Source: Thermoanaerobacterales bacterium
GTDB taxonomy: Bacteria; Bacillota; Thermosediminibacteria; Thermosediminibacterales; Tepidanaerobacteraceae
DNA length: 64,000 nt
Reading direction: 5' to 3'
NCBI GenBank assembly: GCA_012840135.1
Contig: DUMA01000022.1
Location: forward strand, 310,001-374,000
The first letter of the stretch is position 1. The number at the start of each line of letters is the position of its first letter. The notes under the pieces were generated by a model. It made no database searches and was not told where the DNA came from. It worked only from the letters and a program-made list of their open reading frames with translations. Positions 21,539-40,042 of this stretch are shown piece by piece. A program made the position numbers and the translations under genes.

Positions 21539-21615
21539 CGGGGCGTAGCGCAGTTTGGTAGCGCGTTCGGTTCGGGTCCGAAAGGTCGTGGGTTCAAATC
21601 CCGCCGCCCCGACCA
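21539..21615 (+). tRNA. tRNA-Pro (anticodon CGG)
   Basis: Full cloverleaf of 77 nt: acceptor CGGGGCG / CGCCCCG, D stem GCGC/GCGC, anticodon stem TTCGG / CCGAA with loop TTCGGGT (anticodon CGG, G37), T arm GTGGG-TTCAAAT-CCCGC, and encoded CCA. A T-rich stretch follows directly and may end transcription. Confidence 0.95.
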
Positions 21616-29876: not shown

Positions 29877-30054
29877 AGATACCTCTCCTCCAGTTTTTAC
29901 TTTAATCTCAGCCCGTCATGACAAACCATATTTTATCATAGAATCGATTTATGATAAATATCTTTAATGTTTAAAAGTGATTCCCAGCGGCAGTATTGCA
30001 GATGGCGTAAAATTTTATTAGGTCACAGCAAAACGGCGGAGGTACGTAGAAAAA

Positions 30055-30109
30055 AGACCTCACCATCCTCCACAGGATGAGTATAAAACTCAATAGGAAG
30101 GCGAGGTCT
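30055..30109. other. Three-way-junction fold (55 bases)
   Basis: An outer 7-bp stem (AGACCTC 30055-30061 with GAGGTCT 30103-30109) encloses two hairpins: CATCCT/AGGATG (30064-30079) and GAGT/ACTC (30079-30091). It is followed by AT-rich DNA and a short ORF. It could be an RNA leader or the end of a lost mobile element; no family is recognised. Confidence 0.4.
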
Positions 30110-30165
30110 ATATTAATATAATTCAACACATATATGAAAAATTCCTTCTAACGGGAGAGAAAATC

Positions 30166-30381
30166 ATGAAAACCCTGGATGGTGAAAATACTTTTCCTGT
30201 ATTTGTAGAACAACTAGAGGAAATGTACTGGTCCCTATTATTTAGACTTAAACGACCAACACGCCACGATTCACAGTACTTCTCAAAAATGCTTCATAAA
30301 ATGCTGAGGGTGCCATATAATTCAAGGATTCGTGTGGCCTTTCGCAAAGATAAAATTTTATATAATCATCCAGCCCTTTAA
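30166..30381 (+). CDS. Small hypothetical protein
   Basis: 71 residues, ATG seven bases behind GGGAGA. Basic, with no motif I recognise (MYWSLLFRLKRPTRH, RIRVAFRKDK). It sits between the three-way-junction fold and copy 1 of the small repeat gene family, on the same strand. It may be real or a remnant. Confidence 0.4.
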   Translation: MKTLDGENTFPVFVEQLEEMYWSLLFRLKRPTRHDSQYFSKMLHKMLRVPYNSRIRVAFRKDKILYNHPAL

Positions 30382-30524
30382 AAAATGACTTATAACTTGG
30401 AAAATCATTTATACTACCGGCACGTTGCCGGAGGAGCTTGTTTCTGCTTATCTTTCAGTTCCCTTACTTACGGGTCTTAAATTGTTCAGTAATTCCGCTG
30501 TATGGCGTGGAGATGTTTCGAAAA

Positions 30525-30811
30525 TATAACTATAGGGACGGTGTGGTGAAGTTGTATATGAAACTAATAAACAAACCTATTAAACTCATAGCGGGCTTTA
30601 ACCCTGACGGTAAAGTAACACCCACCAGTTTTATTTACGGCAGTCGCCATTACAGAGTGACACGGGTACAAGATTCATGGTCTTATCATAGCTGGGAACA
30701 CGGAAATATACAACATTTTAAGTTACAGGTTATGAGCAATAGCGGTCAGGAGATGTTATGCGAAGCGGCTTTTTTGCAGGATAAAATACAGTGGGTGCTT
30801 GTAAAAATTTA
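30525..30811 (+). repeat. Copy 1 of a dispersed gene-sized repeat
   Basis: From 30525 to 30811 the DNA is nearly identical to 37694-37990, starting at a TATAAC/TATAAT box and running through the coding region. Copy 1 lacks the LexA palindrome present in copy 3 because of a short deletion after TATAGG. Confidence 0.85.
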
Positions 30812-30812
30812 A
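30559..30812 (+). CDS. Small beta-rich protein, family copy 1 (DUF6504-like)
   Basis: 84 residues from the internal ATG at 30559; weaker in-frame starts lie upstream. The chain (KPIKLIAGFNPDGKVTPTSF, GSRHYRVTRVQDSW, LQVMSNSGQEMLCEAAF, WVLVKI) reads as a compact all-beta domain with conserved Trp and Tyr. It resembles the small DUF6504-type domains found with translesion polymerases, but this is a tentative match. It is about 97% identical to the copy at 37.7 kb. The promoter looks degraded: the -10 is kept and the operator is lost. Confidence 0.65.
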
Positions 30813-30868
30813 TTGCGGGTGGTAAAGATTTTTTTGAAGGGAAGATATCACTTTACTGCCAATACTTC

Positions 30869-31306
30869 TCAATCAGTCTTTTTTCTATAATAATAGTCTT
30901 TAACTACCTTTACCCAGTTATAGGTATTTCTCTTAAATTCCATATTCATTTTTTTGCCATTATATAGCCATGCTCCAGAATTAGAAAATATAGCCCCCAA
31001 ATGGCTTGAAAGCTGCGCACGAGTTTCGTTCATCCCGAAGTTTTCGTAAATAAATCTCCCAATACCATTTTTCTCTTCTTTCCGCCGAAGCTTAGCAACG
31101 TTATTGGCAAGAGATTTCCACTCACCGTCACTTAAGTACTCATCAAGCTTATTAAGTTGTTCAACTGAAATCTCATCTTCTAAAGGCTTTTTCATATTCT
31201 TAAATTTTCGTTTTATGTAGATATTACCCTCATCGTCGATCCTCCAGTAAAATTCTTTAGCTTTTCCGCCCAAGGTACGTTCTAACACCCAACTTTCGTT
31301 TGACAT
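30869..31306 (-). CDS. Hypothetical protein next to the DUF6884/GIY-YIG gene
   Basis: 145 residues, charged, soluble, no recognised domain. Seen: ETRAQLSSHLGAIFSNSGAWL near residue 95 and a Lys/Tyr-rich C-terminus (VKVVKDYYYRKK). ATG at 31306 lies ten bases after AAGGG. It follows the nuclease-like gene on the same strand by 131 bases and may be its accessory partner. Confidence 0.6.
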   Translation of the reverse strand: MSNESWVLERTLGGKAKEFYWRIDDEGNIYIKRKFKNMKKPLEDEISVEQLNKLDEYLSDGEWKSLANNVAKLRRKEEKNGIGRFIYENFGMNETRAQLSSHLGAIFSNSGAWLYNGKKMNMEFKRNTYNWVKVVKDYYYRKKTD

Positions 31307-31437
31307 TACTAGCACACCCTTTTATATTTGAATGAAAGAAAATAGATTTTTGCTTTCAGCTTTTAAATCTTAACATGGAAAATATATTACCGTAGGAGTT
31401 TTACTTTCTTGGTTATCATTGGCTTTGAAAAAGTCTC

Positions 31438-32850
31438 TTAAATGTCATTACCTTTGGTGGCTGGTCTTAGGTAATACCTAATCTTTATTGTCGAACTCAT
31501 GCCACTAGGTGTTGTATGGATCAACTCATCTCCTGCTTGCATTTTCTCATACATAATTCTGCATACCTGTGGCATCCTGTTTTTCATACCCATCTGCTTA
31601 TGAATATCTCCTGAAACTAAATCAATATAATCTTCACCTCTTATCTTTGCTTCCTGCAACAATTTTTCAATGTACTGCCTTACATCGTCAGCCGTTTTCC
31701 GCTCCAAATCAGGAGATTCTCTAGCCTTTCTGGAACAATTCACCGCCCTTTGCAATCCTGCCTCTCTCCCCATATTTTTTATGTAGCTATCATTTCCAAA
31801 TCTGGCAAGCCACTTAACTCGCTCTAATTCCTCATCAGATAATGGCTGCCCCTTCAAGCCCTGTTTATTCCAAAGACCGCTGCTCGAGATTTCTGAGGCA
31901 GGATTATTTAAGCCTAGCCAGTTGTTGCTCGGTCCAAACGATGGATCCCTATTGAGGGTTGCAATAATACCTTCTTCTAATCTCAACCGCTCAGCTTCTT
32001 CATCAACCGGAAAACAGACAAACGTGATGTTGTCCCTTAAATATCGGCTAATTTTTGCCTCAAGTTCAGTTTCAAACCCTTCATTTATTAAGTGCCCATA
32101 GTTTCTTTTATTTTTTGATTTGTGCATATCAATTTCCAACACTTGTAAATATGGGTCCGAAGTCATTTTCAAAAAAGCACGGCCTATGTTTTTACGGAAA
32201 ATACTGCCATCAGCATCCTCTTCTAAAAAATGGTCTCTTAATCTTTTCAACAAACGGTCTTGTCCCGAGTGAGTACCTACGCGAACTATCCTGTCCATGC
32301 CATGGTAGCTTTCGCCTTTTTCAAACATGATGTATATGCCATTTTTATAAGGAATCCGATTTATCATCGTCCAATCCAAACGCTGTAGACCATTAAAAAG
32401 CATATGAAGAACTATCACTTTGTCTGATTCTCTTTCAAGCGCAATAAGTCTCTCCAATTCTGGAATCCTTTCTCCTTGCCTCTTGCCTTTGAGAGGAAGC
32501 CAAAAATGAACCAAATAGGCCATAAGATTTTCTTGATAAACTTCGCCGGCCAAAATAATAAACTCATCGCGTTCTAAGTCGGAAACTTTTCGTAATTCGT
32601 TTAACACCATGTCTCCCCATTCTCGCCGTTCCTGGACGTTTTTATTTTTTAAGGTTTCGTTATAAGGTTCAATAATCATATCCTCCGGTACTAAGCCATA
32701 CTTTGCAGAAAGAATAAATATCTTATCTGCGACAAGCTTTGCCAAAGCATATGCCAACCGAAACCGCGGGCTTTCCGAATACAAGTCTCTTGCCGGACAT
32801 TTATATGCTTTTTTATTGCTTGTGCATGAAATCAAAGCAATCCTTGCCAT
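31438..32850 (-). CDS. DUF6884 domain fused to a GIY-YIG-like nuclease domain
   Basis: 470 residues. Residues 1-130 are DUF6884-like (ALISCTSNKKAYKCPARDLY, ILSAKYGLVPEDMIIEPY), related to YaaA/deoxyribosyltransferase folds. Residues about 165-260 look like a GIY-YIG nuclease (NGIYIMFEKGE ... RIVRVGTHSGQDRLLKRLRDHF). The C-terminal 90 residues (YIDLVSGDIHKQMGMKNRMPQVC) resemble the small domain attached to restriction endonucleases. A DNA-cutting defence role is inferred. ATG at 32850 is six bases behind GAGG. Confidence 0.7.
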   Translation of the reverse strand: MARIALISCTSNKKAYKCPARDLYSESPRFRLAYALAKLVADKIFILSAKYGLVPEDMIIEPYNETLKNKNVQERREWGDMVLNELRKVSDLERDEFIILAGEVYQENLMAYLVHFWLPLKGKRQGERIPELERLIALERESDKVIVLHMLFNGLQRLDWTMINRIPYKNGIYIMFEKGESYHGMDRIVRVGTHSGQDRLLKRLRDHFLEEDADGSIFRKNIGRAFLKMTSDPYLQVLEIDMHKSKNKRNYGHLINEGFETELEAKISRYLRDNITFVCFPVDEEAERLRLEEGIIATLNRDPSFGPSNNWLGLNNPASEISSSGLWNKQGLKGQPLSDEELERVKWLARFGNDSYIKNMGREAGLQRAVNCSRKARESPDLERKTADDVRQYIEKLLQEAKIRGEDYIDLVSGDIHKQMGMKNRMPQVCRIMYEKMQAGDELIHTTPSGMSSTIKIRYYLRPATKGNDI

Positions 32851-33078
32851 AAACATCCTCACCTTTATTTTACTTATTTGTTTATATCTAAGTATTAGAG
32901 TCTGTCTTCAACTTAAATGATATAACAAATAGTTTGCACGTACTTCAAAAGGATTTACAATGACATCTTCTATATTCTCATTAATATCTATTGGCTAAAA
33001 TTTAGAAAGAACAAGATACTTATTGCCAACGTTACAATTTATTCCATTTTATGAAATTTGCCCTTGTAGCAAAATCCT

Positions 33079-33738
33079 CTATAAAAGGCAAATATATCTT
33101 GTTAAGGGCAGCCATTCTTCAAATAATAAACGCTTATTCACTTCTATTTCCTGTTGTGTAAAACCAAATATACCTCCGAATGAAGGCAATTCGTTGCCGT
33201 TGGCGTCAGTCTGATATGATCCCTCTGTAGTGGTTCATCAACGCCGTACGATTCAAATGTCATTCTGCCTGGGGTCATGCCGCTTGACAGGTCATTCTCA
33301 TACATATAGTAGACTGCCTGGCGTTCGGTCAGGTTAAAACCGTTCTTGACGCTATTACCCCGGCCACATCACCCCGAGTGATTGGCGCATCCTTAACCTT
33401 GTCATAGCCGTATCCTTTCAGGGGAAGATCCCACCGATCAAGTTCATCGTATATGGATTGCGCCCAGTGTTTCCCTTCTTGCCTCTGATCTATTTTTGTT
33501 TTTTCCGTGTTTGCTACACACCTTGCCAGTATGGCCGCAAATTCCGCTTTGGTGACGCTTTTTGTAGGTTTGAATGTGCCGTCAGGATATCCTTTCACTA
33601 TACCCTTTTCTGCAGCCCATTTGATGGCTTCCGTCGCCCAGTAATTTCTCACACGGTATATTCATTTCCGGCGCCGTAAACTGTTACCACGAAAGCAAAG
33701 GTCAATGTTAGAATCAATGTTATAGATTTTTTAATCAT
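33079..33738 (-). pseudogene. Broken SLH-domain surface protein
   Basis: A good AAGGAGGTTGATC site and ATG (33738) begin a signal peptide (MIKKSITLILTLTFAFVV). The frame then meets TGA right after NEYTV. The next frame encodes an SLH domain (AIKWAAEKGIVKGYPDGTF, SVTKAEFAAILAR) to 33329. Two more frame changes are needed to read on through GFNLTERQAVYYMYENDL and NELPSFGGIFGFTQQE. At least three frameshifts make it a pseudogene of a secreted wall-bound protein. Confidence 0.75.
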
Positions 33739-33943
33739 GAGATCAACCTCCTTATCTTCCCTATATTCCCTTATATTTAACATACCATATAAGGCAGTAA
33801 TGCAAAAAAATAGGCTATTAACCATAACTTTTTATATTTCTTAAAGTTTTATTTTTATAAAATTTGTATTTGCTTTAAGCTGTCTATGTATTTTTTTACC
33901 TTCTCAGGAATAAAACTAATAACTTTAGCCGGAATACTCCGAG

Positions 33944-34088
33944 TACAGGATACATGGCCTCATCACAGTTGGTAACGCTAAAATATACAACAGTTTAAGT
34001 TACAGGTTATGAGCAATAGCGGTCAGGAGATGCTATGCGAAATGGCTTTTCTGCAAGATAAAATGCGGTAGGTACTTATAATATAATA
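33944..34088 (+). pseudogene. Copy 2 of the small repeat gene, 3' half, decayed
   Basis: About 145 bases match the second half of the 30.5-kb and 37.7-kb copies (shared core AGTTACAGGTTATGAGCAAT), with substitutions and an in-frame TAG where the others encode Trp. No start or promoter remains. The rest of the 33739-34263 stretch is AT-rich with no gene seen. Confidence 0.8.
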
Positions 34089-34263
34089 ACTTAGTCCTGT
34101 AAAGCCGGATTTTATGAAACTACTCTCCATTCAAGCTTTGACATGAAATAATTTATAAATTTCTACTACTCTACTGACAATTAGTCTAGAGAGCGGTAGT
34201 ATGAAAAAACTTTTATCATTAGATAGCACCTGCTCTAGTTTCATTTAGGGTTGTTCAAAGTTT

Positions 34264-34875
34264 TCACCCTAATTTACGATAAAGCTCTAGTGATGGTTTG
34301 ATAATCTTGTCGTAAAGGGTTTGACTATCATTAATGTCATATAAATTGTTCTTAATTAATTTTCCTTGAAAGCTTATGTATACATCATTATAATCAATGT
34401 TTTCGGGGTCCTTAAAGACCTTATCATCATTGTATTCAATATGTCCCATGATGTTTTCAAACTTGTTAAACCCTTTGACTTGAGGTTTTTTATTAATATT
34501 ATATAAGACACCTGAATAAATGATCGGCTCGTCGATGTGTTTATCATTGAGCATAATTCTCAGGTATAGGACTCTTAAGTCATCGCCTAACTCAGTAATT
34601 GTTTGCCCGCGTTCACCAGGCTTTGTTTTTTCTTCTGGAACGAAAAACACGGCAAACTTTTTCAAAAGCCAAAGGGGTACATTATTGGCCTCTAACCCTG
34701 TAGAACTCCGGGTGCTGATCCCATAACCTGACGGTTTGCCGATAACAAATTTTTCTTCTTCTTCCCCAAGGGTGCCTTCAATTTCCTTGATCAAGTAAGA
34801 AACTTCAAGGTATAGCTTCTGAATGAAATCAAAAGCCAAAGCTGTCTGCCGGATAATCTCCTCTTTATTTGTCAT
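34264..34875 (-). CDS. Hypothetical partner of the PD-(D/E)XK nuclease
   Basis: 203 residues from ATG 34875. No recognised domain; seen are a helical N-terminus (ALAFDFIQKLYLEVSYLIKEIEG), then FVIGKPSGYGISTRSSTG and VFFVPEEKTKPG. It overlaps the end of the nuclease gene by 11 bases, so the two form an operon and probably act together. Confidence 0.65.
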   Translation of the reverse strand: MTNKEEIIRQTALAFDFIQKLYLEVSYLIKEIEGTLGEEEEKFVIGKPSGYGISTRSSTGLEANNVPLWLLKKFAVFFVPEEKTKPGERGQTITELGDDLRVLYLRIMLNDKHIDEPIIYSGVLYNINKKPQVKGFNKFENIMGHIEYNDDKVFKDPENIDYNDVYISFQGKLIKNNLYDINDSQTLYDKIIKPSLELYRKLG

Positions 34876-35755
34876 AATTCCCACTCCCTTTCCCTTCAAA
34901 AAAGATATTATTCTTAAAAGGATCTAACTTTCCTGATTGCAACAAAGAGCTAAAATTGATATGACGGCGGGAGAAAAAGATGTTCTTTGGACAATAGTAG
35001 AGTGTTCCTGGAAGGTATAAGCTTTTTAAAAAACCGATAAATGCTCCGCGGAATTTAGCAGTTGCCGCTTCAAAAAAGATGCGGTTAAGGCATTTTTGAA
35101 ACGGGTCGAAAATATTTAGGATATTAAAACCTTTGAACCCTCGCAAACCTTTCTTGTCCAGCAGTGTGTAAAGGTCAAGAGCAAACTCGCGTTCATTCCT
35201 GGGTAAATTTAAGCTGCTATTTAGGATATCCTCTAAAAAAGAGGAGACTTGTTGCCAGTTTGTCCATTTTATATAATTCTGAAAATCTGGTGGAACGGAT
35301 TCAAATTTATACTTTTTGTAAATATGGTCAGCGGTAATGGCAATAAGTTTAAAGTATTTATTATAAGCTTTAGCCTCTGACTCACCTTCTTTAATTTCCC
35401 TTATCAACTGAGCTTCATTCTTTGTTGTTTCCTTCCCAAAGTTGGAAAAGTATTTTGCTTCTACAAGCAGATAATAATTTCCAATTAGTATCACTAGGTC
35501 CGGTTCTGTGTTATCATCATATCGCGGCCAGAATCTAAATTCTGCATCTATGGCTTCCTGATTGGTTACTTTAAAACCTAATGTTTTAAGATATTCTTTT
35601 AGAAAAATCTTTCGGTTTGCATATTTAAAAAAAGAAAAGACATTGGAAGTTAAAATGTCTTCCATTCTGTCAAGGTCTTTAGTATCTTTTTTAGTATCTT
35701 CATTATTATTAGTACTTTTTAAAGGAAGCTTTCCGTGTAATTCAGCGGCATACAA
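34865..35755 (-). CDS. PD-(D/E)XK superfamily nuclease-like protein
   Basis: 296 residues from a TTG at 35755 that follows a perfect GGAGGTGAT site; a GTG 12 codons earlier has no good site. The catalytic pattern is visible: EPDLVILIGNYYLLVEAKYF gives Asp ... Glu-x-Lys. An N-terminal helical stretch DRMEDILTSNVFSFFKY is shared with nucleases of restriction type. A defence role is inferred from the fold and the accessory neighbourhood. Confidence 0.7.
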   Translation of the reverse strand: MYAAELHGKLPLKSTNNNEDTKKDTKDLDRMEDILTSNVFSFFKYANRKIFLKEYLKTLGFKVTNQEAIDAEFRFWPRYDDNTEPDLVILIGNYYLLVEAKYFSNFGKETTKNEAQLIREIKEGESEAKAYNKYFKLIAITADHIYKKYKFESVPPDFQNYIKWTNWQQVSSFLEDILNSSLNLPRNEREFALDLYTLLDKKGLRGFKGFNILNIFDPFQKCLNRIFFEAATAKFRGAFIGFLKSLYLPGTLYYCPKNIFFSRRHINFSSLLQSGKLDPFKNNIFFEGKGSGNYDK

Positions 35756-35884
35756 CCCTATCACCTCCGGTTTTTTAAGTTTTATGAGCACTCTTTCAAC
35801 TGCTTAGATAGATTCTTCTTTAATTCGGACACACATATGAGACCTTATGTGATACATATATTAATGATAATTCCAATGATATCG

Positions 35885-36130
35885 TTATTTTAACTTTTCT
35901 GATATTGTAATCCGTTGTGCGATTGAAGTTAATTTGTCTTTAATCAATATCTTATTTTTCCATCTATCGGGAATGGCATTAGACCCGTAGTAAACCCCAG
36001 CCATTCCACCAGTTATAGCCGCAATTGTATCTGTATCTCCTCCAAGATTGGCGGCTTCACATACAGCTTCCTCAAAGGAAGAAGTGTTAATAAAACACCA
36101 TAATACACATATCAGGGTATCTACTACATA
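35885..36130 (-). pseudogene. ADP-ribosylglycohydrolase, C-terminal fragment
   Basis: About 80 codons encode the end of a DraG-type hydrolase, including the metal-binding signature NLGGDTDTIAAITGGMAG, then a normal stop. The front of the gene is missing; the IS remnant begins about 25 bases upstream, so the gene was probably cut by that insertion. Confidence 0.8.
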
Positions 36131-36155
36131 TCACTTTTTTGTGGATTCCTACCGT

Positions 36156-36936
36156 TTATTGGGATAAAATGGGCATACTTGTCCCTCGGGCCTTTGGTGC
36201 AACCTTTTTGGATTGCTCCAACATATATCTGGCAAACCGCTTAAAGTTCTGGGCCAGCACTTTGAAACCTACTGTTATACCGCATTTTGTTTGTTCATCA
36301 TATGATGCCTGTTCCGATAGGAATCTTGCAAGTATCCTTAATGTATCCGAATTCTCCATGCCGGGTAAATTTTCTATTATATTTTTTGCTTCAAGGCAGA
36401 GGTTTAAAAGCATTTCAAGCTTGCTTTCATTTTCTGAAGGCTTTGACCTGTATATGGTCTGGGTTTTAAATTCAGGCTTTAGGATTTCTTTTAGGCTCTC
36501 TGTAAGTTTATCTTCAGGTATTGACTTTACCGCCCGAAGATTAAATTTTCCTGTTCGGGGTGTTTTATAAGGTATTGATATATTCTCGACCTAAAATCAT
36601 ACAGGGTTTTTTCAGCCAGTTAAGCTCTCCCAACACTCGGATTCCCACGGCATAGTTTACAAGATAGTTAAAGTTGAAATTATCTATGAGTTCATCATCG
36701 AAGTAGTTTTTTAGATGCTTTATGTATTCCAGGGATAGAGCTATATTTACCGGAAAGTTTGGTCTTCCCGTATCGCTATATAGTACTGCAAAGTGCTTTT
36801 CATCAATTTTGCAAAAGACATATTTGTAGAATATGGGAGCCCATGATTTATCCAGTTTAGCTTTTATTCCGGGATTCATCCAGTTAGTACTTTCAAATAA
36901 ACAGCCCTGAAGATGGTCTATATTTTCTCTGAACAT
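36156..36936 (-). pseudogene. IS1182-like transposase remnant
   Basis: The N-terminal part (36936-36565) has FPVNIALSLEYIKHLKNYFDDELIDNF and YLVNYAVGIRVLGE, the usual opening of IS1182-group transposases. A frameshift after GREYIN follows, then about 40 codons in other frames, then a C-terminal piece (36413-36156, FKVLAQNFKRFARYMLEQ). The DDE core is deleted. Direct repeats TATCACTTTTT flank the unit at 36129 and 37034. Confidence 0.75.
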
Positions 36937-36949
36937 GTTTTACACCCCG

Positions 36950-37023
36950 TTTATCGTGATTATTGGTTAGTTTTAATCATATTTGACTTTGTCCTTATAT
37001 ATTTTACTATTAATCACGATAAA
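36950..37023. repeat. 13-bp inverted repeat near the IS remnant
   Basis: TTTATCGTGATTA (36950-36962) and TAATCACGATAAA (37011-37023) are perfect inverted copies 48 bases apart, upstream of the transposase start. Both are followed by a TTGGTTA sequence. They could be a terminal or regulatory repeat of the element. Confidence 0.5.
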
Positions 37024-37118
37024 TTGGTTACTTTATCACTTTTTGGGATAGTTATTATTTATTTTTCACTTTTTTGCTTTAGAAACGGGATTAAGAAGAG
37101 GGACTTTTTACACTGTAA

Positions 37119-37297
37119 TCATACATTATCTTCTCTAACCAAATTTTTATGAGTAAAGATTAAATTTATATTTACATAATAATTATTATTAAAATACTCA
37201 TAACTAAAATCCATCCAATCACCTTTTACCTTAAGAGTGTCTAAATAAAGTTGGTCTATTATATTCTCATTCAATTTATCAAATGATACTGATATGT
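37119..37297 (-). pseudogene. Unidentified coding remnant
   Basis: About 60 codons in one frame (ISVSFDKLNENIIDQLYLDTL, KGDWMDFSYEYFNNNYYVNI) end at a TGA. There is no start, and adjoining frames hold stops. It looks like the tail of a lost protein; no family recognised. The AT-rich stretch 37300-37670 shows nothing else. Confidence 0.35.
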
Positions 37298-37670
37298 TTT
37301 TATAAGTTTGCTTTCTGAATCAAAGATTTCACTTTGAAAATCCATAATGTCTACGTAAATCTTTAGAAATAAATTTCTCATAAAGAATTCATTCCTTTCC
37401 AAGACACATTACTCGACATTGTTTTGTTTAACATACGGATTATTTAGGATGATATTTTATATACCTCACATAATCACTGTTTGCGTTTTAGAATCCTGTC
37501 CCGTCTTGAACAGGTGAGTTTTTAAACCGGTATATCACTATTGTATTTTTCTATAACTTTATTAAAATTCCTGCTAAATTTTTCTATTATTTTATTACAT
37601 CGTAAGTATAAAACAATTATTCTCCAAAAATTGAAAGCAAATTTAGAGGGGTTTTTTTAATACAATCTCA

Positions 37671-37720
37671 TTGATATTTGCCTGATTCCGATATATAATT
37701 ATAGGCGAACATTAGTTCGC
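37671..37720 (+). promoter_or_regulatory. SOS promoter with perfect LexA box
   Basis: TTGATA (37671-37676), 17 bases, TATAAT (37694-37699), then the 16-bp palindrome GCGAAC-ATTA-GTTCGC (37705-37720), which contains the Gram-positive LexA core CGAAC-N4-GTTCG. The palindrome covers the predicted transcription start, the ideal place for repression. Confidence 0.85.
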
Positions 37721-37990
37721 TTGGTTGGTGAAATTGTATATGAAACTAATAAACAAACCTATTAGACTCATAGCGGGCTTTAACCCTGACGGTAAAGTAA
37801 CACCCACCAGTTTTATTTACGGCAGTCGCCATTACAGAGTGACACGGGTACAAGATTCATGGTCTTATCACAGCTGGGAGCACGGAAATATACAACATTT
37901 TAAGTTACAGGTTATGAGCAATAGCGGTCAGGAGATGTTATGCGAAGCGTCTTTTTTGCAGGATAAAATACGGTGGGTGCTTGTAAAATA
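37694..37990 (+). repeat. Copy 3 of the dispersed gene-sized repeat
   Basis: Full copy with an intact promoter and LexA box. It is nearly identical in sequence to 30525-30811; a decayed half copy lies at 33944-34088. Confidence 0.85.
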
Positions 37991-38003
37991 TAATTTCTGG
38001 TGA
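37740..38003 (+). CDS. SOS-controlled small protein, family copy 3 (DUF6504-like)
   Basis: 87 residues from the ATG at 37740; GTG 37728 is a possible longer start, and no clear Shine-Dalgarno site is seen. The compact beta-rich sequence (KPIRLIAGFNPDGKVTPTSF, YGSRHYRVTRVQDSW, SGQEMLCEASFLQDKIRW) is close to copy 1. The tight LexA control shows a DNA-damage role; a link to translesion polymerase genes is inferred from the tentative DUF6504 likeness. No polymerase or nuclease gene follows here. Confidence 0.75.
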   Translation: MKLINKPIRLIAGFNPDGKVTPTSFIYGSRHYRVTRVQDSWSYHSWEHGNIQHFKLQVMSNSGQEMLCEASFLQDKIRWVLVKYNFW

Positions 38004-38051
38004 CCATCCTGCAGCCGTAAATGAATTATCTGAAAATGTAATGAATAAAAG

Positions 38052-38079
38052 TGGTGCCGGGAACCGGAATCGAACCGAA
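38052..38079 (-). other. tRNA 3'-end fragment (probably tRNA-Leu), likely att site
   Basis: The minus strand carries a T arm core (CGGTTCGATTCCG) and an acceptor 3' strand ending CCCGGCACCA, but nothing upstream folds as a tRNA. Such 28-nt fragments are left at the far end of elements integrated into tRNA genes. An acceptor 5' strand GCCGGGA would fit tRNA-Leu; the intact gene is not in the window. Confidence 0.65.
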
Positions 38080-38179
38080 ATCATTACATTGTCTAAGAAG
38101 TAACACATGATATTAATTTGTTGCACTAAACCGTTCCCCAGTTGCCGCAGGAACAAAATGCGATAATTCCATAGTTTTA

Positions 38180-38389
38180 TTTCAAAAAATTAATCACTAC
38201 TATAGATATGAAAACTACCCTGAAGATACTTTGGGCCATAAAATCAGCAAACAAAGATTTTTAAAAGGCCTTACTGCTGCCGAACTAGGGAAGTTGTATG
38301 GTTATGTAGAGAAAAATCAGAGATTTATATCATCTATTATTTCACATATGAGTAAGCATCATCGGTATTGCATTAATATCATGTATTAG
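38180..38389 (+). pseudogene. XRE-type HTH remnant
   Basis: 70 codons without a start codon. PEDTLGHKISKQRFLKGLTA and AELGKLYGYVEKNQR follow the pattern of small helix-turn-helix proteins (TLGEHIRKRRLDLGLTQ-like). It ends at TAG 24 bases before the beta-propeller gene. Confidence 0.5.
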
Positions 38390-38413
38390 AAAATAAATGA
38401 AAGGGGGATATTT

Positions 38414-39916
38414 ATGTCAAACAACTTTGTTAAAATTACTCCAGTCAATGGTTTTGACAGTACGAATCTGGATAATGCAAAACAGAACAACTATGCTTGG
38501 TCTATGGAAGAAATGGGAGATTATATATATGTGGGTACAGGGAGGAATATAGTGTTTTCGGTTATTAAGGTGGGAACATTTCCGGGACTTCAGGTACCAC
38601 CGGAGTTTGTTCCCCAGAATGTGGATATGAATGCGGAAATCTGGAGGTATAAAAAGGACGGTTCTGAGGGGTGGCAAAGGGTGTATAAAGCGCCTCCCCA
38701 ATTGGGTATCATCGGTTTCCGTTTTATAATCCGCTACACAACACCCCGAGGCGAGACAGCCTTATATGCCGTTGGTTATACTATCCAACCTAAGATTGTT
38801 ATTCTAAAATCTCTAGATGGTGTTCAGTGGACACCTCTGGTAACTGATATTCAAGGAACGTCTACCAGGGCGATGATAGAGCATAATGGAAAGTTGTATA
38901 TGGGGGTATTAGGGGATCCCGTAGCAGGGAACGCGTTACTTTATGTCAGTGAAGACCCTGAAAAAAACGGATGGACTTTGGTCAGTGCACAAGGAGACCC
39001 CGACAGGAATCCTCGAGGCGGAATCGTCACCATGGTAAGCTTCAACGGCCATATCTATGTGGGAACGTCACCGGTGGGGGGCTTTGAAGTCTGGAGGACA
39101 GAAGGACTGGAACCACAGATGGACGGGTGGAAGTTGGTGGTAGATAAGGGGGCCGGAGACGGATTAAATGAAATTCCGTTAAGTATGGGGGTATTCCAAG
39201 ATAATATATATGTTGGTACAGCTATTACATTCGCTATTTCAAGTGTTGATTCAGCCAGAAAAATTGTTCCTCCAAAACCTTTTGACCTTATCCGGATAAA
39301 CCGTCATGACGAGTGGAAGGTTATTGTTGGAGGAGAGCCTGTTTTGCCTACAAATTCCGTCACAGGCAAAAGGAACAAAGGTAAATATGTATCCGGCTTC
39401 GGAGATATTTCCAATGGTTACTGTTGGCAGTTGAAACAGTTTGGGAACCGGTTCTACCTGGGTACCTGGGACTGGTCCGACCTGCTTCCGCCTTTAATTA
39501 CATCTCTAGTTACAGTCAATAAGGGCTTGCTGCCGGCTGTTTTAGCCTGGTTTGTAGATCCTTCCAATATCATCAACTTAATACAGGAATATAATTTAAA
39601 GCCACTGCTTCCACTGTTTAAATTATTTAAGGGTCCTCATGGCGATTTTAGCGAGAATCTAGGATTTGACCTGTATGTCTCTGAAAATGGAGAGGATTGG
39701 AAAGCTGTGACCCTGGATGGATTGGGCAACCCCTATAACTATGGCTTGAGAAATTTATTGCCCAGCGAAGATGGCAAGCTGTATCTTGGTACTGCAAACC
39801 CCTTCCAGGGATGTGAAGTGTGGGTAAAGGACATAAAGCATGCTGAAGGTGATATGGAAACAATAACGGGAGCAGAGCTGGCTCAATATGGCCTTGTGAA
39901 AATGTCACCCCAATAG
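38414..39916 (+). CDS. Beta-propeller-like protein with YVGT repeats
   Basis: 500 residues, ATG behind AAAGGGGG. The motif Y(V/L/M)G(T/V) preceded by a hydrophobic strand recurs at least six times (IYVGTG, LYMGVL, IYVGTS, IYVGTA, FYLGTW, LYLGTA), each followed by a W- or F-containing strand (EVWRTEG, EIWRYKKDG). This fits a six- or seven-bladed propeller. No signal peptide or catalytic motif is seen, so it is probably cytoplasmic and binds a ligand or partner. Acquired region; function unknown. Confidence 0.75.
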   Translation: MSNNFVKITPVNGFDSTNLDNAKQNNYAWSMEEMGDYIYVGTGRNIVFSVIKVGTFPGLQVPPEFVPQNVDMNAEIWRYKKDGSEGWQRVYKAPPQLGIIGFRFIIRYTTPRGETALYAVGYTIQPKIVILKSLDGVQWTPLVTDIQGTSTRAMIEHNGKLYMGVLGDPVAGNALLYVSEDPEKNGWTLVSAQGDPDRNPRGGIVTMVSFNGHIYVGTSPVGGFEVWRTEGLEPQMDGWKLVVDKGAGDGLNEIPLSMGVFQDNIYVGTAITFAISSVDSARKIVPPKPFDLIRINRHDEWKVIVGGEPVLPTNSVTGKRNKGKYVSGFGDISNGYCWQLKQFGNRFYLGTWDWSDLLPPLITSLVTVNKGLLPAVLAWFVDPSNIINLIQEYNLKPLLPLFKLFKGPHGDFSENLGFDLYVSENGEDWKAVTLDGLGNPYNYGLRNLLPSEDGKLYLGTANPFQGCEVWVKDIKHAEGDMETITGAELAQYGLVKMSPQ

Positions 39917-40013
39917 AGGTAGTTTTATCCTGAGAAAAAGTCACCTTTTCTTATAGCTTAACCAATATTTACCCATCTTGATGTACCTAGGGTAAAATAA
40001 ACGCTGAGCGGTC

Positions 40014-40042
40014 TTGACAATATTCGAGAAAAGTTGTATATA
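40014..40042 (+). promoter_or_regulatory. Promoter of the fmdB-like gene
   Basis: TTGACA, 17 bases, TATATA, about 60 bases before the coding start. Confidence 0.65.

What the first reader, a model, noticed from the sequence alone, without database searches (positions are those of the whole stretch)
37671..38003. Small gene under textbook SOS control
A consensus promoter (TTGATA-17-TATAAT) is followed, over the predicted start site, by a perfect 16-bp LexA palindrome. The gene it drives encodes an 87-residue protein, not a known SOS effector. SOS-induced small proteins can be polymerase cofactors, division inhibitors or prophage triggers. It lies in a decaying island between two nuclease units and a tRNA fragment.
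Basis: partly seen in the sequence, partly recalled or inferred. Interest (0 to 1): 0.75.

Follow-up and report, generated by a model that had tools for sequence, protein, structure and literature searches.

The report
Lone SOS-controlled mutasome-subunit gene (ImuB-C)
A small gene carrying a LexA (DNA-damage) switch encodes a stand-alone copy of ImuB-C, a beta-barrel part of error-prone DNA-repair polymerase complexes, and here it sits by itself on a mobile island, as its relatives also do in prophages.

Summary
TTGATA-17-TATAAT (37671-37699) is followed by GCGAACATTAGTTCGC (37705-37720) and an 87-codon gene (37740-38003). The host has a LexA, and its recA and dinB promoters carry GAAC-N4-GTTY boxes just after the -10. 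[quoted passage not shown] Relatives in the host's phylum lie in imuB-like/dnaE2 operons or beside dinB. LexA boxes precede them far beyond chance: 23 of 66 perfect, 0.19 expected. AlphaFold2 gives a confident six-stranded all-beta model (pLDDT 92). Here the gene is an orphan. The genome has one Y-family polymerase (dinB, another contig, itself LexA-boxed), no imuB-like gene and no recognisable dnaE2. A 95%-identical copy without the operator and a dead remnant share its island (29.9-40.0 kb, GC 37%), which the sister species lacks. Sixteen IMG/VR prophage contigs carry ImuB-C; 15 show no polymerase within about 4 kb, and 9 have LexA-like boxes. Likeliest role: an SOS-induced accessory subunit acting in trans on the host's DinB-RecA. 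It is a new member of a known kind; its spread on prophages and islands is the fresh part.

The parts
37671..37699 (+). sigma-A type promoter, TTGATA-17-TATAAT
37705..37720 (+). 16-bp perfect LexA operator palindrome GCGAACATTAGTTCGC, over the predicted transcription start
   Evidence: same layout at host recA, dinB and several other promoters
37740..38003 (+). 87-aa stand-alone ImuB-C protein (orphan)
   Evidence: profile tests, six-stranded AF2 model, alignments
30558..30812 (+). copy A: 84-aa paralog, 95% identical over 84 aa, lacking the operator (about 15 bp missing in an otherwise similar promoter)
33931..34081 (+). copy B: dead remnant of the same gene (3 in-frame stops)
29889..40028 (.). 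island of about 10.1 kb absent from the sister species, GC 37.2% against 43.4/44.0% in the flanks
38052..38077 (-). short sequence resembling the 3' end of a tRNA (T-arm plus acceptor), possible att remnant; not called as a tRNA

Best explanation
The gene encodes a stand-alone ImuB-C protein, a small six-stranded beta protein that serves as accessory subunit of error-prone polymerase complexes. LexA bound at 37705-37720 blocks its promoter. RecA-driven LexA cleavage after DNA damage releases it together with dinB and recA. The protein then most likely docks on the host's only Y-family polymerase, DinB, whose C-terminus carries a RecA-like motif, and helps the DinB-RecA complex work at blocked forks. 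The gene is cargo of a decaying mobile island, so the subunit is supplied in trans to the host polymerase. Shown by sequence: family, fold model, operator, host LexA and its boxes, the island, no imuB-like partner. Inferred: LexA binding, induction, docking on DinB, effect on bypass or mutation.
For: Family: profiles built without the window copies score it 33-50 bits; the best of 5000 shuffles scores 8-15. Family profile A2 hits 167 of 398 phylum genomes; members lie beside ImuB-like/DnaE2 or DinB genes. The ImuB-like-side profile finds the C-terminus of a fused ImuB (E 6.5e-5). Fold: pLDDT 92, pTM 0.81, six strands, as reported for ImuB-C (PMC12926913). Regulation: perfect boxes within 250 bp upstream of 23 of 66 family operons, 0.19 expected; with at most 1 mismatch 42 of 66, 4.8 expected. 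Host boxes: recA AGAACGATTGTTTG, dinB AGAACATGTGTTCG, lexA AAACATATGTTT. Host DinB C-terminus KLNQVVDEIKDRFGDGAIFRA resembles RecA IEKQKALEMALSQIERQFGKGSIMKL (motif class in PMC6511836). Orphans with their own boxes: L007, L102, L104, L116, L128, L158, and prophage copies.
Against: No polymerase lies beside this copy and only one DinB exists in the genome, so a partner is assumed. The host's DinB is only about 37% identical to DinBs that have an ImuB-C neighbour. The protein is divergent (at most about 36% identical to any other member) and does not reach Pfam's DUF6504 model. Copy A without the operator and the dead copy B show that the gene can decay here. No expression or binding data.
Confidence: 0.7

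Rival explanations
1. The gene is a relic: an acquired ImuB-C copy that is still readable but no longer does anything, like its neighbours in the island.
For: Dead copy B and operator-less copy A in the same island; transposase and gene fragments around it; absent from all other members of the host's family searched.
Against: Intact reading frame, near-consensus promoter, perfect operator and plausible ribosome site all kept together in one copy; the model folds with high confidence.
Confidence: 0.17
2. The palindrome is not a LexA operator but a chance or structural element, such as a hairpin at the 5' end of the messenger; the gene is then constitutive.
For: The same bases form a 5-bp stem with a 4-base loop at the 5' end of the RNA; the genome-wide count of CGAAC-N4-GTTCG is no higher than chance.
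Against: Position right after the -10 as at host recA, dinB and several nuclease-like genes; LexA boxes are frequent upstream of this protein family, including orphans.
Confidence: 0.1
3. The protein works without a polymerase: it binds damaged DNA or another repair protein, or serves the mobile element, for example by tuning the host SOS or polymerase response during excision or lysis.
For: Orphan here and in prophages (no polymerase within about 4 kb in 15 of 16 viral contigs), some between endolysin/holin and integrase genes. PMC3765255 proposed damaged-DNA binding and notes ImuB-C beside other repair genes.
Against: Most chromosomal relatives pair with a translesion polymerase, and AlphaFold work in PMC12926913 places ImuB-C at the polymerase interface.
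Confidence: 0.2

Closest known systems
Stand-alone ImuB-C proteins beside YqjH-type DinB polymerases of Clostridia (PMC6511836; examples here L157 Sedimentibacter, L159 Clostridia with dinB-imuB-C-SRAP)
   Same: Size 80-90 aa, all-beta, MK.(I/L)..PI....A.F start and W.L.K end, LexA box often upstream of the unit
   Different: There it is coupled to dinB; here it has its own promoter and operator and no polymerase nearby; about 30% identity
Stand-alone ImuB-C of ImuB-like/ImuY - ImuB-C - DnaE2 cassettes (Pfam DUF6504 in this phylum; Deinococcus deserti Deide_1p01890, PMC8072749)
   Same: Same superfamily and SOS control; in D. deserti the operon is induced by DNA damage through RecA and LexA
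   Different: No ImuB-like or recognisable DnaE2 gene in this genome; the WW.GE motif of that clade is missing
C-terminal domain of ImuB in ImuA-ImuB-DnaE2
   Same: Domain homology at family level
   Different: Fused to an inactive polymerase there; free-standing here
YolD/YqjX and UmuD' small subunits of Y-family polymerases
   Same: Work-alike: small SOS-induced beta-rich accessory subunit, sometimes encoded apart from the polymerase or on prophages
   Different: Different fold class according to PMC12926913 (SH3-like barrel against the ImuB-C barrel); no sequence match found

Membership tests
ImuB-C superfamily | Profile similarity to known stand-alone ImuB-C / DUF6504 proteins | tested here: met
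   33-50 bits against profiles built without it, shuffles at most 15 bits; hhalign probability 97-99%; the G041 relative it matches passes the DUF6504 cut-off
[quoted passage not shown]
   Tested for the family, not for the window protein alone: the ImuB-like-side profile hits residues 430-480 of a 509-aa ImuB next to a DnaE2-like protein on a Rhizobium plasmid, E 6.5e-5, and no other ORF
ImuB-C superfamily | About 80-90 residues, all beta, barrel | tested here: met
   87 aa; AF2 model with six strands and no helix, pLDDT 92, pTM 0.81; barrel closure not measured
ImuB-C superfamily | Highly conserved C-terminal tryptophan | tested here: met
   W79, invariant in alignment A7
ImuB-C superfamily | At least two conserved positively charged residues | tested here: inconclusive
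   K83 is invariant in alignment A7; the second position of PMC3765255 could not be mapped from text alone
Pfam DUF6504 (PF20114) as modelled | Score above the gathering cut-off of 24.2 bits | tested here: not met
   No hit up to E 1; 11.8 bits for copy A. Not filed under this model
PolY-ImuB-C or ImuB-ImuB-C-DnaE2 cassette | Polymerase gene in the same operon | tested here: not met
   No polymerase beside it; the only IMS-family gene is dinB on contig C22
LexA (SOS) regulon of the host | LexA-type box overlapping the promoter, host LexA present | tested here: met
LexA (SOS) regulon of the host | Binding by LexA and induction by DNA damage | not testable with these tools
   needs gel shift and RNA measurements

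The most novel reading that the evidence does not exclude
Orphan, self-regulated imuB-C genes are a travelling class of SOS cargo on prophages and genomic islands: a single small subunit that plugs into whatever Y-family polymerase-RecA complex the host owns and changes the host's damage tolerance or mutation rate in trans.
Probability: 0.3. Interest if true: 0.7.

Novelty: new member of a known kind. Interest (0 to 1): 0.42.

Why it matters
ImuB-C is called the least characterised module of bacterial mutasomes (PMC6511836). A free-standing copy with its own LexA switch, in a genome with a single Y-family polymerase and no imuB-like gene, is a clean place to ask what the subunit does alone. 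Its presence in prophages next to lysis and integration genes suggests that mobile elements spread mutasome subunits without polymerases, which the papers read here do not describe.

Tried and rejected
Pfam, NCBIfam, PHROG and PADLOC scans of the protein itself gave nothing usable; only family profiles resolved it. Single-protein searches of viral contigs found nothing, nor did two alignment queries; a third found 16. No ImuB-C relative among PDB sequences. Foldseek and VIA-align 2 gave no convincing PDB fold (best Z 6.6 to a designed inhibitor, then cystatin-like and kinase lobes), so no known fold is claimed and absence is not proof of novelty. One viral model matched (A0A8S5PG70, TM 0.73). 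Tested and dropped: gene start at TTG 37725 (overlaps the ribosome site, not conserved); a tRNA-Pro att link (the tRNA-Pro at 21539 has a different 3' end); palindrome significance from genome counts alone (not significant). The second DnaE of the host (contig C55) was considered as a possible DnaE2; it is no closer to DnaE2 than the replicative-type DnaE is (39% each), so it is not counted as one, but no tree was built.

Full report
What was checked. The promoter (TTGATA-17-TATAAT, 37671-37699), the 16-bp palindrome GCGAACATTAGTTCGC (37705-37720) and the 87-codon gene (37740-38003) are exactly as described. CGAAC-N4-GTTCG occurs only here in the 3.18-Mb genome, but about two are expected from base composition, so the count is not evidence. 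The position is. Perfect GAAC-N4-GTTC is found at 21 places, half the reversed control, and several of those with AT-rich centres sit in promoters: dinB, four nuclease-like genes on C13 and C37, a further C13 gene, and this one.

The host's SOS system. One clear LexA with the Bacillus-type reading head is present. Its own promoter carries AAACATATGTTT. recA has TATAAT-TAGAAAA-GAACGATTGTTT-GGAGG and dinB has AGAACATGTGTTCGGAGGG just before its start.

What the protein is. Library scans fail on the 87-aa protein, but a first genome search brought a distant relative in G041 that passes the DUF6504 cut-off and follows an ImuB-like polymerase gene. A profile from nine sequences then found the family in 167 of 398 genomes of the phylum. 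Context splits it into three: between imuB-like and dnaE2, directly beside dinB, and orphans. Profiles built without the window copies score the window protein 33-50 bits; 5000 shuffles reach at most 15. The ImuB-like-side profile also hits the C-terminus of a fused ImuB next to a DnaE2-like protein on a Rhizobium plasmid. This is the ImuB-C superfamily of Aravind and co-workers (PMC3765255), later placed in PolY-ImuB-C pairs of Clostridia (PMC6511836) and modelled as a beta-barrel unlike SH3 (PMC12926913). In Deinococcus deserti an 80-residue stand-alone ImuB-C lies in a damage-induced, LexA-linked operon (PMC8072749).

Structure. AlphaFold2 on the window protein with 18 relatives gives pLDDT 92, pTM 0.81 and six strands (E2-14, 20-27, 30-45, 49-60, 65-73, 78-84), no helix. 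No solved structure matches convincingly, in line with the published remark that ImuB-C lacks close PDB relatives. The best viral model is an uncharacterised siphovirus protein (TM 0.73).

SOS control is a family trait. In 66 family operons a perfect GAAC-N4-GTTC lies within 250 bp upstream of 23, where dinucleotide shuffles give 0.19; with one mismatch allowed 42 against 4.8; the reversed motif gives 1 and 4. Orphans count too: L007, L102, L104, L116, L128 and L158, a Clostridiaceae MAG with TTGACAATGAACATATGTTCTGCTATGCT.

Mobile context. In the same-genus genome G001 the genes flanking window 29888 and 40029 are neighbours with a short gap; the 10.1 kb between is extra here and has GC 37.2% against 43.4 and 44.0%. 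The island holds the operator-bearing gene, a 95% identical copy whose promoter lacks about 15 bp that include the palindrome, a dead third copy, transposase-like fragments, a DUF6884-containing protein and a PDC-M15A-like protein. No other genome of the host's family or order that was searched has an intact copy. A scan of IMG/VR found 16 prophage contigs with ImuB-C. Only one (L170) shows dinB within about 4 kb. Nine have a box with at most one mismatch within 300 bp (L160-L167 and L175), five of them perfect (L161, L162, L165, L166, L167). In the contigs checked the neighbours are endolysins, holins and integrases. A Desulfosporosinus plasmid carries one as well.

Mechanism. Shown: family, fold model, operator, host LexA boxes, orphan state. 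The genome has one Y-family gene, dinB, PolC and two DnaE proteins, neither recognisable as DnaE2. DinB's tail resembles the RecA N-terminal helix, the mark of RecA-binding PolYs (PMC6511836). The inference is that SOS induction makes ImuB-C, DinB and RecA together, and that ImuB-C docks on DinB in trans. Docking and any mutagenic effect are not shown.

Verdict. The gene is real and very probably SOS-controlled, and it belongs to a known superfamily. What is less expected is the polymerase-free, self-regulated, mobile form.

Noticed in passing
G000:C13:139992, C13:146689, C37:6622, C13:179836 (L050, L051, L067, L054): Perfect GAAC-N4-GTTC boxes directly after a -10 in front of four genes, three of which encode DUF4351-containing proteins (resembling Rpn/PD-(D/E)XK nuclease-type proteins by eye); they look like further SOS-controlled genes of the host.
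   Followed up: partly
L160-L175, e.g. L162 2456-6686: Prophage contigs carry orphan imuB-C next to endolysin, holin or integrase genes, several with a perfect LexA box.
   Followed up: partly
window 31438-32862 (-): 474-aa protein joining regions matching PADLOC PDC-M57A and PDC-M57B (DUF6884 plus a GIY-YIG-like part by eye), a candidate defence gene.
   Followed up: no
window 34264-35791 (-): Two overlapping ORFs, the 308-aa one matching PADLOC PDC-M15A (weakly NERD-like), a second candidate defence unit in the same island.
   Followed up: no
window 38414-39916 (+): 500-aa protein with repeated segments like a beta-propeller, no clear family, inside the island.
   Followed up: no
L159 3501-4482: dinB - imuB-C followed by a SRAP (YedK-like, MCGRF start) gene in a Clostridia MAG, matching neighbourhoods described in PMC3765255.
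   Followed up: no
G000:C55:9000-19000 (L152): A second DnaE-type polymerase of about 1180 aa near a DNA methylase-like gene; class (DnaE1 or other) not settled.
   Followed up: partly
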